DNA of 64,000 bases from Cristatella mucedo (Eukaryota > Bryozoa > Phylactolaemata > Cristatellidae). The stretch covers positions 3,182,501-3,246,500 of the forward strand of contig WPIO01000043.1 of NCBI GenBank assembly GCA_009760855.2. Reading direction: 5' to 3'. The notes beneath the pieces were generated by a model. That model saw nothing but the letters and a program-made list of their open reading frames with translations, made no database searches and had not been told where the DNA came from. A program made the translations under genes and the position numbers. Shown here piece by piece: positions 35,001 to 36,702 of this stretch; within the stretch, counting starts at the first letter, position 1; each line of letters starts with the position of its first letter.

Positions 35001-36702
35001 ACAATACTGTGAGCCGTAATGGCTCACCAGGTAAGGCGGATGCTTTTCACGACCTCGGCCCGATGTCGTGGGTTCGAATCCTGCGGTGGGCGATCCTCTG
35101 TCGCCACTGCAAGCGGTGGCGATAGCCGCGAATGCTCTTCTGTCGCTATAAAAAAAGAAGCTGTTAAATCAGCTAGCATTCTTAGGCTGACCCACAAGGT
35201 CAAGGCCACAGCTTGGCTCCTCCGTACCGAGGCTGAAATTCTGCACCAGTTTCAACCACCTCCTCGTGCCCTCAGGTCCTGTATGGACAATAAATTAGCT
35301 GTTTCGTTTCTCCTCTTAAGACCTTTCGCGACAGAAGCTTTTGCTCTGCTCTTTTGTCCTCGTGACTGTGGAACTCTCTTCCTTCACGATTCTTACGCAG
35401 CCATAGCTACTCTCCTGCTGCCGACTATGGCACATCTTTTCCAGCCGTCCTAAACTGCTACGTCCAGGCTACTCACTACCTTAACTGCTCTCCTGACTCA
35501 GCTGTGCTTCTTACTTTCTCTTGTGAGATGGTCCGTTGGCTACCGAATGCTGACCGAAAGCCGCTTAGGTGGTGAATGCGTTATGCAAAACTCTCCTCCG
35601 TATCACCCACAGTCTTTGTGGCTTTGTGGAGTTACAGACAGAGATACGCTACATTGCAGTTCATTTGTTCTGCCTTACTACTATTCGGCCACTACTTTTA
35701 CAGCCATCCTTCGCTTTGGGCCACTTCAACTTGCTTCCGTTCCCGAGGTCTTAATTCGGCACTGTTTTCACTTCTGTCATTAAAGTAAATAAGCGGTTCT
35801 CAACCGCGCTAATGCCGCGACCCTTTAATACAGTTCCTCGTGTTGTGGCGACCCCCTGCCATAAATTTGTTGTGTGCGAAACGTGGAAGTGCGAGTTTAC
35901 CGGTGGTCTTAGGCGACCTCTGCGAAAGGGCCGTTCGACCCCCAAAGGGGTCGCGACCCCTCCAGGGGTTGAGAGCAGCTGTAGTAAATGAACGCTGCTG
36001 ACTATAGATGGCTCGAAAAGGGCTGCTCGACCTATTTAAGTGTGCTCGAGAGTTTTCATCGTATGCGAACCTACTTTGTACCTTGTACCTTTGCGGTTGC
36101 TGATAACTTCATGATGTCGCCTCCAAGCCTTCGCCTAACCTTCTCCCAGGTCAGCTCCGACGTTCTGAGACTGCCCTACAGGTCGGCCAATATACCAGAG
36201 GCACAGCCAAGAATGCGTTATGGGGTTGGTGGAGGTTTTAATGCCGAAGGCCTGACCACGACCTTGCCCAAGACGGCCAATCATAGTAGCAATAATAATA
36301 ATAATAATAATGCACTTGATAAAGCGCCCTCAGAGAACTCAATCTAATGCTATATAGGGAAGGGAGCCTTCATAAAGCAAATGAATGTAAGCAAATGAAC
36401 GCTCGATGCCCGCGGTAGTAGCCGGCTCTGTATGCCCTGTGAGCCCAGCTCTGTATGCCCTGTGAGCGGCTGTCTCTTGTAACGCTCCTGAAATGCTGCT
36501 ACGTTAAGGCATTTACAGTTTGCCGGTGTCGCACGAATGCACGTTGGCAGTCGCTCGACAGATTTGTCCTCTTCTAGATGAGTACGTGGCAACGCTGCAT
36601 CTACCTACGTTTGACGGCCATCTGACCGATCTGACAGACGAGCAAGCCAAGTACCTGGGACTCAGTAAAAGTGGCCCGTTCAAGCCCAACTACTACCGGT
36701 AG
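4911..36702 (+). CDS. AHCYL1: Adenosylhomocysteinase-like protein (AHCYL/IRBIT type), C-terminal nine exons
   Basis: Spliced CDS, 5'-partial: 4911-5087, 5466-5512, 10329-10392, 10505-10593, 14298-14368, 28209-28303, 33428-33595, 33845-33923, 36578-36702. This totals 915 nt: 304 residues and a TAG stop. All introns are GT...AG and the phases agree. The product matches the NAD-binding/AdoHcyase-like part of the AHCYL family. [20 protein letters not shown] is AHCYL-type, whereas canonical AHCY has GISEETTTGVHNLY. Visible landmarks are ILDDGGD, the Rossmann motif [37 protein letters not shown] and the C-terminal GPFKPNYYR. Family knowledge: AHCYL proteins tetramerise, bind NAD and regulate IP3 receptors and ion transporters rather than hydrolysing AdoHcy efficiently. 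The regulatory N-terminus would lie in exons upstream of the window. Oddity: the C-terminal Tyr that usually follows the last Arg is absent. Vertebrates have two paralogues; orthology to either one is not resolved here. Confidence 0.95.
5271..5338. repeat. TA-rich microsatellite
   Basis: Alternating TA with TTTA variants in the short intron between exons a and b. Confidence 0.9.
5466..5512 (+). CDS. AHCYL1: AHCYL exon b
   Basis: A 47-nt exon too short for simple ORF calling. Acceptor cttgcag ends at 5465 and the donor gtgagt starts at 5513. Encodes [15 protein letters not shown] plus two bases of Ala. It contains the Asp-Asn pair and the Cys equivalent to AHCY Cys195. The intron before it (5088-5465) contains a TA microsatellite. 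Confidence 0.93.
5925..6312 (+). mobile_element. LINE-A 3' ends, clustered
   Basis: A short 3' tail with ATT repeats (5928-6028), a scrap of a reversed tail (6028-6043), then a young-looking LINE-A 3' UTR (6045-6312) from aaacacacctatttaagaca to gggcactttatcaagtgcat and ATT repeats. Confidence 0.85.
6313..6475 (+). mobile_element. SINE-2
   Basis: Head tggctagcggttaaggga, B box gggtcgagtccc, tail aagcgcctgactagagatta...gggcgctatgcaatg. A 22-bp duplication of the gaccgaggtc segment lengthens the head. Confidence 0.8.
6590..7626 (-). pseudogene. Decayed ORF of a multiplied, uncharacterised mobile-element-like protein
   Basis: Read on the - strand from 7626, the sequence encodes an acidic start, then [16 protein letters not shown] and [17 protein letters not shown]. 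After frame changes it continues with [16 protein letters not shown] (about 7193-7146), [13 protein letters not shown] (about 7110-7072), [18 protein letters not shown] and [15 protein letters not shown] (to about 6865). This order of motifs matches, from memory, a large family of uncharacterised proteins multiplied in aphids, Hydra and other invertebrates. Several in-frame stops and frameshifts show that it is dead. It lies antisense in an AHCYL intron. The 3' limit near 6590 is approximate and no terminal repeats were found. Confidence 0.6.
7627..7682 (+). repeat. Left part of an unnamed repeat split by LINE-A
   Basis: ctactaattaaagcgagact...gcagcaagat continues at 8570-8640 (gacgtcgcg...actatgaatcagcg...ggcagtgag). 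An unsplit relative is at 29222-29362. Confidence 0.7.
7683..8553 (-). mobile_element. LINE-A, 5'-truncated, with target-site duplication
   Basis: Minus-strand 3' half of RT, 3' UTR, hairpin and ATT tail. Flanked by a 16-bp duplication, catcacgcagcaagat (7667-7682) and catcaagcagcaagat (8554-8569), with one mismatch. RT-derived frame on the - strand: [35 protein letters not shown] and [15 protein letters not shown] young subfamily, very similar to 41579-42166 and 45102-46283. Confidence 0.92.
8570..8640 (+). repeat. Right part of the repeat split by LINE-A
   Basis: gacgtcgcgttgccatgacg, then ctatgaatcagcgaag and ccacaggcagtgag, matching 29274-29362. Confidence 0.65.
8641..10020. other. AHCYL intron sequence, nothing recognised
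   Basis: No motif-supported coding sequence, RNA or named repeat was found. A G run occurs at 9061-9068. Short ORFs look random. Confidence 0.5.
10027..10190 (-). mobile_element. tRNA-derived SINE, divergent third type
   Basis: ATT repeat followed on the - strand by a tRNA-like head (ttagccgaggggtaaggc as A box, gggttcgagttatatg as B box) and a body caggcaatcagttcttca. It may be a distant SINE-1 relative. Confidence 0.5.
10329..10392 (+). CDS. AHCYL1: AHCYL exon c
   Basis: Acceptor ctcacag ends at 10328 and the donor gtgcgt starts at 10393. The first base completes the split Ala codon. The 21 following codons, [12 protein letters not shown] onward, end at GYGE, so the NAD-binding glycine motif is cut by the next intron. 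No ATG-initiated reading frame reveals this exon; it was found by matching to the family. Confidence 0.93.
10505..10593 (+). CDS. AHCYL1: AHCYL exon d
   Basis: Follows a 112-bp intron. Acceptor gctgtag ends at 10504 and the donor gtaatg starts at 10594. Encodes VGKGCC, completing the glycine motif, then the second half of the Rossmann unit, ending [11 protein letters not shown] with a split Cys codon (phase 2). [13 protein letters not shown] replaces the CAALKALG-type segment of vertebrate proteins. Confidence 0.92.
10594..11080. other. AHCYL intron sequence, nothing recognised
   Basis: Between exon d and the LINE-B block. No supported feature. Confidence 0.4.
11080..12560 (+). mobile_element. 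LINE-B with an internal deletion
   Basis: Covers the region before RT ([51 protein letters not shown]) and RT. It then jumps at about 12296 from GDNF (reference about 1840) to [17 protein letters not shown] (reference about 2212), a loss of roughly 370 bp. Many stops. Confidence 0.8.
12583..13553 (+). mobile_element. LINE-A, degenerate
   Basis: From [10 protein letters not shown] through [20 protein letters not shown] and LVQAFVT to the 3' hairpin aaagctcctagaaagagatt and ATT repeats. Abuts LINE-B. Confidence 0.85.
13566..14190 (+). mobile_element. LINE-C, 3' part
   Basis: RT C-terminus ([27 protein letters not shown]) and a 3' UTR ending aaagcacctgaatagatatt...ggatgctatgcaaacgacat plus ATT. 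This tail closely resembles the SINE-2 tail. Ends about 110 bp before AHCYL exon e. Confidence 0.7.
14298..14368 (+). CDS. AHCYL1: AHCYL exon e
   Basis: Acceptor ccctag ends at 14297 and the donor gtaagc starts at 14369. Encodes [18 protein letters not shown], then IITCT and the first base of a split Gly codon. This fits the NAD-domain segment between ALQAC and TGNKN of the family. Confidence 0.94.
14466..14580. repeat. 25-bp tandem repeat carrying antisense splice-donor consensus
   Basis: Five exact-period units; cacttacctg begins at 14467, 14492, 14517, 14542 and 14567. On the - strand each unit reads caggtaagtg, a perfect U1 donor consensus. About 100 bp downstream of exon e. Confidence 0.9.
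14590..15475. other. AHCYL intron sequence, nothing recognised
   Basis: Runs of T and A only. No supported feature. Confidence 0.45.
15476..15690 (-). mobile_element. LINE-A RT fragment
   Basis: Minus strand: cctaaaagtgagcgaaaaaa, then ccttggagtcgatgagttgc and gacagacgagcctagctgca, the [15 protein letters not shown] to LQNSAARL region. Confidence 0.8.
15988..16062. repeat. TG/TGCG microsatellite
   Basis: (GTGC)n, then (TG)n, then (GCAT/GCGT)n. Confidence 0.9.
16073..16240 (+). mobile_element. SINE-1, near full length
   Basis: gagccgtgatggcacaccga head, B box gtgggttcgaaatcttgca, body gcggtggcgaaaatcgtaaa, end gaggcgactaaatcagca. Confidence 0.88.
16290..16405 (-). mobile_element. LINE-A 3' tail, solo
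   Basis: ATT repeats, ctcggagaactcagtctctt, tctaggcacttcatatttgc and caaaggaagcatgac-like end only. Confidence 0.75.
16406..17239. other. AHCYL intron sequence, nothing recognised
   Basis: AT-rich with small ORFs. No family recognised. Confidence 0.4.
17240..17545 (-). mobile_element. LINE-A, old divergent copy
   Basis: tctgggagcatgcgaactga and ggaaccacgtgtgacaggaa preserve the minus-strand LINE-A order, but similarity is low. Resembles 21395-21810. Confidence 0.55.
17570..17837 (+). mobile_element. LINE-B internal fragment, both ends missing
   Basis: Encodes remnants of [39 protein letters not shown] and [15 protein letters not shown]. Nearly identical to 1192-1345. Ends abruptly at a SINE-1 without the LINE-B 3' end. 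Confidence 0.85.
17838..17970 (-). mobile_element. SINE-1
   Basis: agctgatttaacagcttcat, caataaaagatcgcccactg and cacgatttgaacccacgacc on the + strand are the reverse of SINE-1. Confidence 0.85.
17972..18098 (+). mobile_element. SINE-2, near full length
   Basis: tggtctagcggttaaggtgc head, gggctcgagccccgaggc B box, gaagcgcctgaatagagatg to gggcgctatatataaatgaa tail. Head to head with the SINE-1 before it. Confidence 0.92.
18300..18960 (+). mobile_element. LINE-A, old divergent copy
   Basis: Recognisable only in order: the [12 protein letters not shown] segment, atgctggtccatgcatttgc, then caaagccttgtcactgactt. Heavily decayed. Confidence 0.5.
18965..19375 (-). mobile_element. LINE-A RT fragment
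   Basis: Minus-strand RT C-terminal region ([19 protein letters not shown]), lacking the 3' UTR. Confidence 0.75.
19595..19641. repeat. (AT)n(AG)n microsatellite
   Basis: Perfect AT run followed by a perfect AG run at the SINE-2 3' boundary. Confidence 0.92.
19642..19772 (-). mobile_element. SINE-2, nested in LINE-A
   Basis: Tail tagtgccctaagagaaccta and atctctattcaggcgcttct, then the reversed B box ggggctcgagctc and head ggtcgggcgagcaccttgac. Confidence 0.88.
19824..19920. repeat. (TA)n(TG)n microsatellite in LINE-A
   Basis: About 97 bp of TA then GTGC/TG, expanded between ATGCTGTGAT and TTTCTTTTTAAAT of LINE-A. Confidence 0.92.
20524..20705 (-). mobile_element. SINE-1
   Basis: agttcaacagcctcttttgt, cattgcccactacaggatta, gaacccacgacctcggggcc and tagtgagccatcatggccca in minus order. 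Confidence 0.9.
20790..21330 (+). mobile_element. LINE-A, 3' part, young subfamily
   Basis: RT C-terminus ([40 protein letters not shown]), full 3' UTR, hairpin aaagcgcctagaaagagatt and TTATC tail. Confidence 0.88.
21395..21810 (-). mobile_element. LINE-A, old divergent copy
   Basis: gcattttagcttctttttaa, gaacctgaaagtgacttggg and gatccagtgcaggttagaaa preserve the LINE-A minus order. Confidence 0.6.
22128..22345 (-). mobile_element. LINE-B 3' end
   Basis: gtgttacgcaggagagtttt, cgttcggtagccaataaact and gagaaagtgggcagcattgc are the reverse of the LINE-B 3' part. Confidence 0.85.
22665..23370 (-). mobile_element. LINE-A central RT fragment
   Basis: Minus strand: [19 protein letters not shown] (RT motif A), then a [20 protein letters not shown] segment and the FQLHNIAKI region. 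Neither the 3' end nor the 5' end is present. Stops present. Confidence 0.8.
23371..24146. other. AHCYL intron sequence, nothing recognised
   Basis: No supported coding, RNA or repeat feature. Confidence 0.4.
24148..24275 (-). mobile_element. SINE-2
   Basis: cattaatctctattcaggcg-like tail, catatgccacgggctcgagc and gagcaccttaaccacaattg head in minus order. Confidence 0.88.
24460..24870 (+). mobile_element. LINE-C fragment
   Basis: [16 protein letters not shown] RT C-terminus and tgtccatcattcggtgcatg, parallel to 13690-14040. Confidence 0.5.
24935..25020 (-). mobile_element. SINE-2 3' fragment
   Basis: ttctacagcatcctaattgt, acttaatctctatccaggtg and gggctcagatccatgactt. Confidence 0.6.
25262..25420 (+). 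mobile_element. SINE-1
   Basis: gagccgtaatggctcactag, ggttaggcggttcacgacct, aggtcgtgggttttaatcct and gtctgctaaatcagcct. Confidence 0.88.
25430..27620. other. AHCYL intron sequence, GC-rich patches, nothing recognised
   Basis: G runs at about 26090-26101 and 26793-26801. Several overlapping random ORFs on both strands. No supported gene. Confidence 0.4.
27622..27910 (-). mobile_element. SINE-1 split by a LINE-B 3' end
   Basis: Minus-strand SINE-1 from tagctgatttaaaagcctct to caggattcgaac (about 27718), resuming at 27841 with cccacgacctcgagaccgag and ending at tagtgtgccatcactgctca. Confidence 0.9.
27719..27840 (+). mobile_element. LINE-B 3' end, 122 bp, nested in SINE-1
   Basis: gttggctaccgaatgcgtac through gcgtaacacccacgtggtct to ggcggagatacattacatta. 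Confidence 0.9.
27953..27993. repeat. (TA)n microsatellite
   Basis: Perfect TA run about 215 bp before exon f. Confidence 0.93.
28209..28303 (+). CDS. AHCYL1: AHCYL exon f
   Basis: Acceptor attgcag ends at 28208 and the donor gtgagg starts at 28304. 31 codons after the split Gly: [16 protein letters not shown] through [12 protein letters not shown]. The His in CNMGH is the equivalent of AHCY His301. The intron before it is about 13.8 kb. Confidence 0.95.
28806..28972 (+). mobile_element. SINE-1, best-preserved copy
   Basis: gagccgtgatggcacactag, ggtaaggcggttgctttcac, perfect B box ggttcgattcc, body gcggtggtgatagccgtaaa, end gaggctgtttaatcagctag. Reference copy for the family. Confidence 0.95.
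29222..29362 (+). repeat. Unsplit copy of the unnamed repeat
   Basis: ctactaattaaagcaagaaa, tccatcatacggcaagatga, ctatgaatcagcggatcgat and cataagcagtgag, without LINE-A. Counterpart of 7627-7682 plus 8570-8640. Confidence 0.7.
29365..29462 (-). mobile_element. SINE-1, partial
   Basis: gagccttaacggttgtcacc, tttcccactgcaggattcga and accctcgacctcggtcgtga. Confidence 0.8.
29640..29770 (+). mobile_element. LINE-A 3' UTR scrap
   Basis: tgctaccactagccatacga, aaattacctagaaagatatt and gtggcgcttaacaaataaat. Confidence 0.7.
29757..30725 (-). mobile_element. LINE-A, RT C-terminal half and 3' UTR
   Basis: Minus strand: [40 protein letters not shown] and [17 protein letters not shown] to the 3' hairpin and ATT tail. 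Tail to tail with the scrap before it. Frames interrupted. Confidence 0.9.
30865..31170. mobile_element. LINE-A pieces in opposite orientations
   Basis: 30865-31060 reads + (cacaccacttctcgccgacc, cccaatcaaacagagtattg). 31060-31170 reads - (gatgtcacaaatgcatggac, taaataagcccgaatttagc). Confidence 0.75.
31171..31337 (+). mobile_element. LINE-B internal fragment
   Basis: aggccaccccaagcttgcag and tatcctctttgatggcagcc, the IGHPKRVAGL to VVFDSCLNFKSF segment, truncated at both ends. Confidence 0.75.
31338..31487 (+). mobile_element. SINE-2
   Basis: ctggttcggccaagtggtta, tggctcgagcctgaggcaca and gaagcgcctgaatagagatt. Confidence 0.9.
31490..32865. other. AHCYL intron sequence, nothing recognised
   Basis: C run at 32322-32331. 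No supported feature. Confidence 0.4.
32868..32920 (-). mobile_element. SINE-2 tail only
   Basis: gtaaagcatcctaagagaac and aaatctctattcagcaactt. Confidence 0.6.
32976..33146 (+). mobile_element. SINE-1
   Basis: gagccctgatggcacactag, ggttaggccgttgcttttct, agtgggctcgaattctgctg and gaggctgttaaatcaccttg. Confidence 0.9.
33308..33356. repeat. (CA)n microsatellite
   Basis: Interrupted CA/CG repeat about 70 bp before exon g. Confidence 0.9.
33428..33595 (+). CDS. AHCYL1: AHCYL exon g
   Basis: Acceptor cctgtag ends at 33427 and the donor gtcggt starts at 33596. 56 codons, phase 0 at both ends. Carries [31 protein letters not shown] and [10 protein letters not shown], all typical of AHCYL. Confidence 0.95.
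33845..33923 (+). CDS. AHCYL1: AHCYL exon h
   Basis: Acceptor ttgcag ends at 33844 and the donor gtgaga starts at 33924. Encodes [18 protein letters not shown] then VYLLPKKM, ending with the first base of a split Asp codon. The intron before it is 249 bp. Confidence 0.95.
33930..35005. other. Last AHCYL intron, first part, nothing recognised
   Basis: Overlapping short ORFs on both strands, none with a recognisable motif. Confidence 0.4.
35010..35181 (+). mobile_element. SINE-1, joined to LINE-B
   Basis: gagccgtaatggctcaccag, gtgggttcgaatcctgcggt, gcggtggcgatagccgcgaa and gaagctgttaaatcagctag, then LINE-B with no gap. Confidence 0.92.
35182..35658 (+). mobile_element. LINE-B 3' part
   Basis: From cttaggctgacccacaaggt (reference copy about 2205) to cagagatacgctacattgca. 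Encodes remnants of [15 protein letters not shown]. Confidence 0.88.
35791..35981 (+). mobile_element. SPIN-like hAT non-autonomous element (MITE)
   Basis: 191 bp with imperfect terminal inverted repeats: aagcggttctcaacc at the left and ggttgagagcagctg at the right. Near-duplicate 8-bp flanks aagtaaat (35783-35790) and tagtaaat (35982-35989) fit a hAT target duplication. Internal segments taatgccgcgaccctttaat, acagttcctcgtgttgtgg, ggtggtcttaggcgacc and cgacccccaaaggggtcgcg correspond, from memory, to SPIN/URR1-type hAT-Charlie MITEs known from tetrapods and a few invertebrates. No coding capacity. It lies in the last AHCYL intron. Confidence 0.78.
36288..36350 (-). mobile_element. LINE-A 3' tail, solo
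   Basis: ATT repeats and cttgataaagcgccctcaga...actcaatct, about 60 bp only, some 230 bp before exon i. Confidence 0.8.
36578..36702 (+). CDS. AHCYL1: AHCYL terminal exon i
   Basis: Acceptor cttctag ends at 36577. Encodes [20 protein letters not shown], then DEQAKYLGL and GPFKPNYYR, and stops with TAG at 36700-36702. Most family members have one more Tyr after the final Arg. The Tyr-Tyr before it, which includes the NAD-contacting Tyr of AHCY (Tyr430), is kept. A 27-bp tandem array starts 42 bp after the stop. Confidence 0.95.

What the first reader, a model, noticed from the sequence alone, without database searches (positions are those of the whole stretch)
35791..35981. SPIN-like hAT MITE, a candidate horizontally transferred element
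The sequence shows imperfect hAT-type terminal repeats, an 8-bp near-duplicate flank (7 of 8 bases) and long internal identity to SPIN/URR1-type non-autonomous hAT elements as I remember them. Published work describes SPIN as horizontally transferred among distant tetrapods and found in a few invertebrates (a triatomine bug, a pond snail, a planarian). Finding it inside an AHCYL intron here would add a host and help date the invasion.
Basis: partly seen in the sequence, partly recalled or inferred. Interest (0 to 1): 0.82.

Follow-up and report, generated by a model that had tools for sequence, protein, structure and literature searches.

The report
Vertebrate SPIN transposon in an invertebrate genome
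A short dead copy of SPIN, a jumping gene known for crossing between distant animals, sits in a gene intron of an invertebrate whose genome holds hundreds of such copies, so this animal joins the short list of invertebrates that caught it.

Summary
Window 35791-35981 is a 191-bp non-autonomous hAT element with 8-bp target duplications (7/8), in the last intron of an AHCYL gene. It is one diverged copy (K2P 0.136 from the family consensus) of a 187-bp family in the window's own 572-Mb genome. A 21-base word of that consensus occurs 238 times exactly, against 0 for the control. Target duplications show an nnnTAnnn pattern. The consensus of 30 such copies differs from the recalled sequence by 2/80, 5/132 and 0/79 bases (5' end, inside, 3' end); the inside is absent from the window. 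Mitochondrial code and gene order make the host a lophotrochozoan, probably a mollusc. Horizontal transfer explains this best. A few decayed longer copies, one of 3.29 kb, bracket what looks like a dead transposase gene. SPIN relatives in snails are already known, so this is a new host for a known phenomenon.

The parts
35791..35981 (.). SPIN-family hAT MITE, short (187-bp consensus) form, 191 bp here
   Evidence: 82-89% to 39 other copies; K2P 0.136 to family consensus
35791..35807 (.). left terminal inverted repeat
   Evidence: 13/17 complementary to the right end; consensus 15/17
35965..35981 (.). right terminal inverted repeat
35783..35790 (.). left target-site duplication AAGTAAAT
   Evidence: TA at positions 4-5 as in most other copies
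35982..35989 (.). right target-site duplication TAGTAAAT (7/8)
33924..36577 (+). last intron of AHCYL that holds the element (2654 bp, GT-AG, phase 1)
   Evidence: the script set the donor one base early; corrected from the letters shown
33845..33923 (+). AHCYL penultimate exon
36578..36702 (+). AHCYL last exon, ends ..GPFKPNYYR*

Best explanation
This is a dead, internally deleted copy of SPIN, a cut-and-paste hAT transposon. SPIN reached the ancestor of this lophotrochozoan (probably a mollusc) by horizontal transfer, directly or through intermediates, from the same pool of elements that invaded tetrapods. In the host a short form of about 187 bp was mobilised in trans by a transposase from longer copies, inserted into about nTCTAGAn targets with 8-bp duplication, and reached hundreds to a few thousand copies. 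It then died; sampled copies now differ from their consensus by about 9%. Shown: the family, its copies, targets, consensus, divergence and decayed longer copies with the same ends. Inferred: transfer, its direction, the age, the total copy number, and mobilisation by those longer copies.
For: Whole-genome copies. Target duplications: T at position 4 in 64 of 74 and A at position 5 in 63 of 74 flanks; at least 6/8 in 27 of 37 copies against 6.7% when shuffled, and in 11 of the 15 of 20 pattern-chosen copies whose ends could be placed, against 12.9% when shuffled. Ends of the 187-bp consensus differ from recalled SPIN by 2/81 and 0/85. The recalled 311-nt SPIN query, first typed before any long copy had been seen, matched nearly all its length at 33 of 40 scored places, 80-87% (2273 first-look candidates). 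Consensus of 30 long copies: 2/80, 5/132 plus a 3-base gap, and 0/79 differences, while the inside has no real match in the window. 238 exact matches of a 21-base consensus word against 0 reversed controls. Divergence of 20 pattern-chosen copies: median K2P 0.091, range 0.062-0.130. A 3288-bp copy with both SPIN ends and GCTTAATC/GCTTAAAC flanks. Host is not a vertebrate: COX1 fits mitochondrial code 5, and the block nad1-nad6-cob-nad4L-nad4-nad5 lies on one strand, the lophotrochozoan ground pattern in PMC5162086 (passages).
Against: The SPIN reference was recalled, not taken from Dfam or Repbase. The inner transposase-like pieces matched no hAT model in Pfam (0 of 6 pieces) and one piece matched only an unrelated PDB chain at E 0.009. 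No SPIN ends lay beside 70 of the 138 hAT dimerisation-domain hits. A 17-base stretch near the 3' end differs from recalled SPIN (7 mismatches and a 13-base insertion). Not all copies show the duplication: 10 of 37 fall below 6/8, 4 of 15 in the fairer sample, and of the 40 long copies 26 of the 33 with both ends placed reach 6/8 when small offsets are allowed, without a control.
Confidence: 0.93

Rival explanations
1. An ancient hAT-Charlie family inherited vertically since the bilaterian ancestor, resembling SPIN through shared descent.
For: Charlie-type hAT elements share the ..GGTTCTCAACC end and TCTAGA-like targets (recalled).
Against: The inner sequence of the host consensus is identical to recalled tetrapod SPIN at 127 of 132 aligned bases, and sampled copies are only about 9% from their consensus; neither fits over 500 million years of neutral change.
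Confidence: 0.03
2. Vertebrate contamination of the assembly.
For: SPIN is abundant in several tetrapods (recalled).
Against: The copy sits inside an invertebrate AHCYL intron. Copies lie on many contigs, some over 12 Mb, and both forms share a change from recalled SPIN.
Confidence: 0.01
3. A hAT lineage native to molluscs or other lophotrochozoans that tetrapods later acquired, so this animal is on the donor side.
For: Biomphalaria glabrata holds about 1,000 copies of a hAT with significant identity to SPIN (PMC5440852, passages). Decayed long copies exist here.
Against: Nothing here gives a direction. The divergence range of the 20 pattern-chosen copies (0.062-0.130) suits one burst, but the choice favours less diverged copies.
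Confidence: 0.12

Closest known systems
SPIN (SPACE INVADERS) / URR1, tetrapods (Pace 2008, Gilbert 2010 and 2012: not held, recalled; SPIN is placed in hAT-Charlie in PMC4054807, passages)
   Same: Ends, 132 aligned inner bases, 8-bp target duplication, non-autonomous copies
   Different: Host is a lophotrochozoan; the 20 pattern-chosen copies are all of a 187-bp deletion form; a palindrome replaces a 17-base junction in the long form
SPIN in Rhodnius prolixus (PMC11614815, passages) and in the pond snail Lymnaea stagnalis (recalled)
   Same: Invertebrate host carrying tetrapod-like SPIN
SPIN-like hAT of Biomphalaria glabrata, about 1,000 copies (PMC5440852, passages)
   Same: Lophotrochozoan host, copy number of the same order as my estimate
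   Different: Relationship of the two families not tested
OC1 horizontally transferred hAT (PMC3621081, passages)
   Same: Same kind of spread among distant animals
   Different: A different family

Membership tests
hAT superfamily (Charlie/Buster-type) MITE | 8-bp target-site duplication with TA in the middle (pattern recalled) | tested here: met
   window 7/8; 27 of 37 and 11 of 15 copies at least 6/8; T4 64/74, A5 63/74
hAT superfamily (Charlie/Buster-type) MITE | terminal inverted repeats of about 15 bp, CAGNGGTTCTCAACC (recalled) | tested here: met
   13/17 window, 15/17 consensus
hAT superfamily (Charlie/Buster-type) MITE | mobilised by a hAT transposase from a longer element with the same ends | tested here: inconclusive
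   3288-bp copy with both ends found; its reading-frame pieces look like Charlie-type transposase by eye but match no Pfam hAT model
SPIN | sequence identity to SPIN consensus beyond the ends | tested here: met
   against a recalled 311-nt consensus; a database consensus was not available
SPIN | patchy presence across hosts from horizontal transfer | not testable with these tools
   own genome 'has no relatives here'
SPIN | transposase sequence clustering with SPIN transposases | not tested
   no reference transposase available; the host pieces found are broken or short

The most novel reading that the evidence does not exclude
SPIN invaded this lophotrochozoan lineage independently of the snail cases, and the host belongs to a group (a gastropod outside the freshwater pulmonates, or a phylum other than Mollusca) for which I know of no SPIN record, so the transfer network reaches beyond blood-feeders and fluke-carrying pond snails.
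Probability: 0.5. Interest if true: 0.6.

Novelty: new member of a known kind. Interest (0 to 1): 0.45.

Why it matters
It adds an invertebrate genome with hundreds or more SPIN copies to one of the best examples of transposons crossing animal phyla. The assembly has contigs up to 24.8 Mb, so copies and the relic source elements can be dated and placed in a SPIN tree. That would let the proposed routes (blood-feeders, parasites, water) be tested.

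Tried and rejected
Other public collections: exact SPIN patterns in viral contigs and genome contigs gave 0; phages gave four matches of 24 bases at E 8 and plasmids none. Searching papers for SPIN letters gave 66 papers, 40 listed, which looked like primers and unrelated sequence (listing only). SPIN papers asked for by id are not held; one search was a guessed DOI, also not held. First guesses of lamprey, tick and flatworm as host: the matched AHCYL exons are 63-86% identical to recalled human AHCYL1, which speaks against a vertebrate; COX1 reads AAA as Lys, ATA as Met and AGR as Ser (judged by eye), which speaks against flatworms and chordates other than lancelets; the gene order speaks against arthropods (arthropod order recalled). 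The abundant hAT transposase family was rejected as the SPIN partner: no SPIN ends in its 30 fetched loci nor beside 40 weaker hits, i.e. 70 of 138 hits examined. Flanks of the 20 pattern-chosen copies cut at fixed offsets agreed at 6/8 or better in only 2 of 20 by my count, because small insertions and deletions shift the ends; with the ends placed, 11 of 15 agree. The Rfam SSU rRNA search of the genome was asked seven times and never answered.

Full report
Observation. The window sequence at 35791-35981 has terminal repeats AAGCGGTTCTCAACC.. / ..GGTTGAGAGCAGCTG and flanks AAGTAAAT / TAGTAAAT. The window holds no second copy. It lies in the last intron (33924-36577) of an AHCYL gene on the + strand, whose exons were found with a recalled human AHCYL1 query and have GT-AG boundaries at this intron. 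The joined exons match Pfam AdoHcyase_NAD at 2.1e-76 and, best in PDB, 3mtg (E 6.3e-172).

Copies in the genome. The window lies in an unnamed 572-Mb assembly of 688 contigs. A search with the element scored 40 of 1996 first-look candidates and returned itself and 39 others at 82-89% identity. I fetched all 39 with flanks. In 37 of the 40 copies both ends could be placed. The 8-base flanks agree at 6/8 or better in 27 of 37 and at 7/8 or better in 23 of 37; shuffled partners do so in 6.7% and 2.9%. Position 4 is T in 64 of 74 and position 5 is A in 63 of 74 flanks. That is the target pattern I recall for Charlie/Buster-type hAT elements.

Family consensus and divergence. The 40 copies give a 187-bp consensus. 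The window copy is K2P 0.136 from it; the 40 have median 0.068, but they were chosen by similarity to the window copy. A fairer sample is 20 copies picked from the 100 places listed of 238 exact matches to a 21-base consensus word (the window copy itself lacks that word). Their median is 0.091, range 0.062-0.130, with the word left out of the count. All 20 fit the 187-bp form; the fetched stretch was cut to suit that form. Asking for an exact word still favours less diverged copies. In 15 of the 20 both ends could be placed, and 11 of 15 flanks agree at 6/8 or better, against 12.9% when shuffled. The 238 exact matches stand against 0 for the reversed control. At about 9% divergence roughly one copy in six or seven would keep the word, so I infer on the order of 1,500 copies. 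This is an estimate, not a count.

Identity to SPIN. No repeat library was available, so I used SPIN as I remember it. Ends: the host consensus differs from the recalled ends by 2/81 and 0/85, the window copy by 10/81 and 10/85; at 19 of these 20 positions the host consensus agrees with the recalled sequence. I then searched the genome with a recalled 311-nt SPIN_NA consensus whose inner part is not in the window. At 33 of 40 scored places (of 2273 candidates) the match ran from position 12 or earlier to 290 or later, at 80-87%. I fetched all 40; 33 had both ends placed and 30 of these were 280-360 bp long and gave a 321-nt consensus; the 30 copies lie at median K2P 0.113 from it, range 0.066-0.187. 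Against the recalled sequence it differs at 2/80 (5' end), 5/132 plus a 3-base gap (inside), 7/17 plus a 13-base insertion (junction) and 0/79 (3' end). The recalled inside has no real match in the window (one 19-base hit, E 0.078) and matches all 40 fetched long copies. The recalled sequence was first typed before any long copy was seen, so the agreement inside is not circular; but it is memory, not a database record.

Longer copies. Two long copies carried extra inner sequence. With it I found 30 matches, of which three places hold both halves more than 2.5 kb apart in the same orientation. One of them runs from G000:C111:23756954 to 23760241 (3288 bp) between GCTTAATC and GCTTAAAC. On the opposite strand its inside has broken reading frames resembling Charlie/ZBED5-type transposases to my eye. 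Pfam gave no hAT match for 6 pieces from these copies. One 120-residue piece, searched against the genome (150 of 183 candidates scored), recurs at E below 1e-8 in four places: C111 itself, C133 and C676 with stops inside, and C658, where the open frame is only 61 residues. Seven further matches at 25-30% identity are probably other hAT elements or genes. So a plausible source exists but looks decayed, and its identity as SPIN transposase was not shown by a tool.

Host. The assembly's mitochondrial contig (C688, 21,008 bp) encodes COX1 open over 517 codons in code 5. By eye, AAA falls at Lys, ATA at Met and AGR at Ser positions of the query, which speaks against the flatworm/echinoderm, vertebrate, tunicate and cnidarian codes (codes recalled, the cnidarian code not run). 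Gene order on one strand is cox3-atp6-cox1-nad3 .. nad1-nad6-cob-nad4L-nad4-nad5. Pfam names eight of these ten; nad4 matched a domain that nad5 shares, and nad6 matched nothing and was recognised by eye. I did not place the remaining genes. The second block is the lophotrochozoan ground pattern given in PMC5162086 (passages read). Nuclear G+C (48.3% in the window), the dense LINE ends and SINEs, L2-like by eye, and the rearranged mitochondrial order fit a gastropod as I know them, but the phylum is not proven.

Interpretation. DNA this close between a lophotrochozoan and tetrapods, in a part with no sign of coding, is very unlikely to have been conserved for over 500 million years, so horizontal transfer is by far the best account; direction, route and date are open. 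Precedent exists: SPIN in Rhodnius (PMC11614815, passages), a SPIN-like hAT in Biomphalaria (PMC5440852, passages), and Lymnaea (recalled). At an assumed neutral rate of 2-4 substitutions per site per billion years, 9% divergence would mean roughly 23-46 million years; the rate is assumed, not measured.

Noticed in passing
G000, e.g. L053 and L048-L077: A second hAT family: 63 of 138 dimerisation-domain matches (PF05699) score 69 bits or more, mostly the same 76.8 bits, with open frames up to about 640 aa (one listed at 1947). Fifteen of 29 other loci, compared on one strand with L053, are mostly 99.2-99.9% identical over about 2 kb, so it moved very recently. Not SPIN (no SPIN ends). Possible recent horizontal arrival.
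   Followed up: partly
window 36134-36211: A 78-bp inverted copy (88%) of the start of an upstream AHCYL exon with its splice acceptor (33393-33469) lies in the last intron.
   Followed up: no
321-nt long SPIN consensus; L090-L129: A palindrome (CCTAAGACCATCGGAAA..TTTTCCGATGGTCTTAGG) replaces a 17-base junction of recalled SPIN; part of it (GGAAATGCGTG) is also in the 187-bp form, so both forms share a change from recalled SPIN.
   Followed up: partly
window, many places, e.g. 5930-6312, 42075-42156, 52102-52183: SINE-like repeats and L2-like LINE 3' ends seem to share one tail (..AAAGCGCC..CTCTGAGGGCGCTTTAT..ATTATTATT), as if the SINEs borrow the LINE's 3' end.
   Followed up: no
G000:C688 and L132 (C83:2758-3735): The 21-kb mitochondrial contig repeats a stretch (same peptide at 13746-13973 and 11631-11858), and an old broken copy of COX1 lies on C83.
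   Followed up: no
window 36743-36847: Perfect 27-bp tandem repeat (3.9 copies, 100%) starting 41 bp after the AHCYL stop codon.
   Followed up: no
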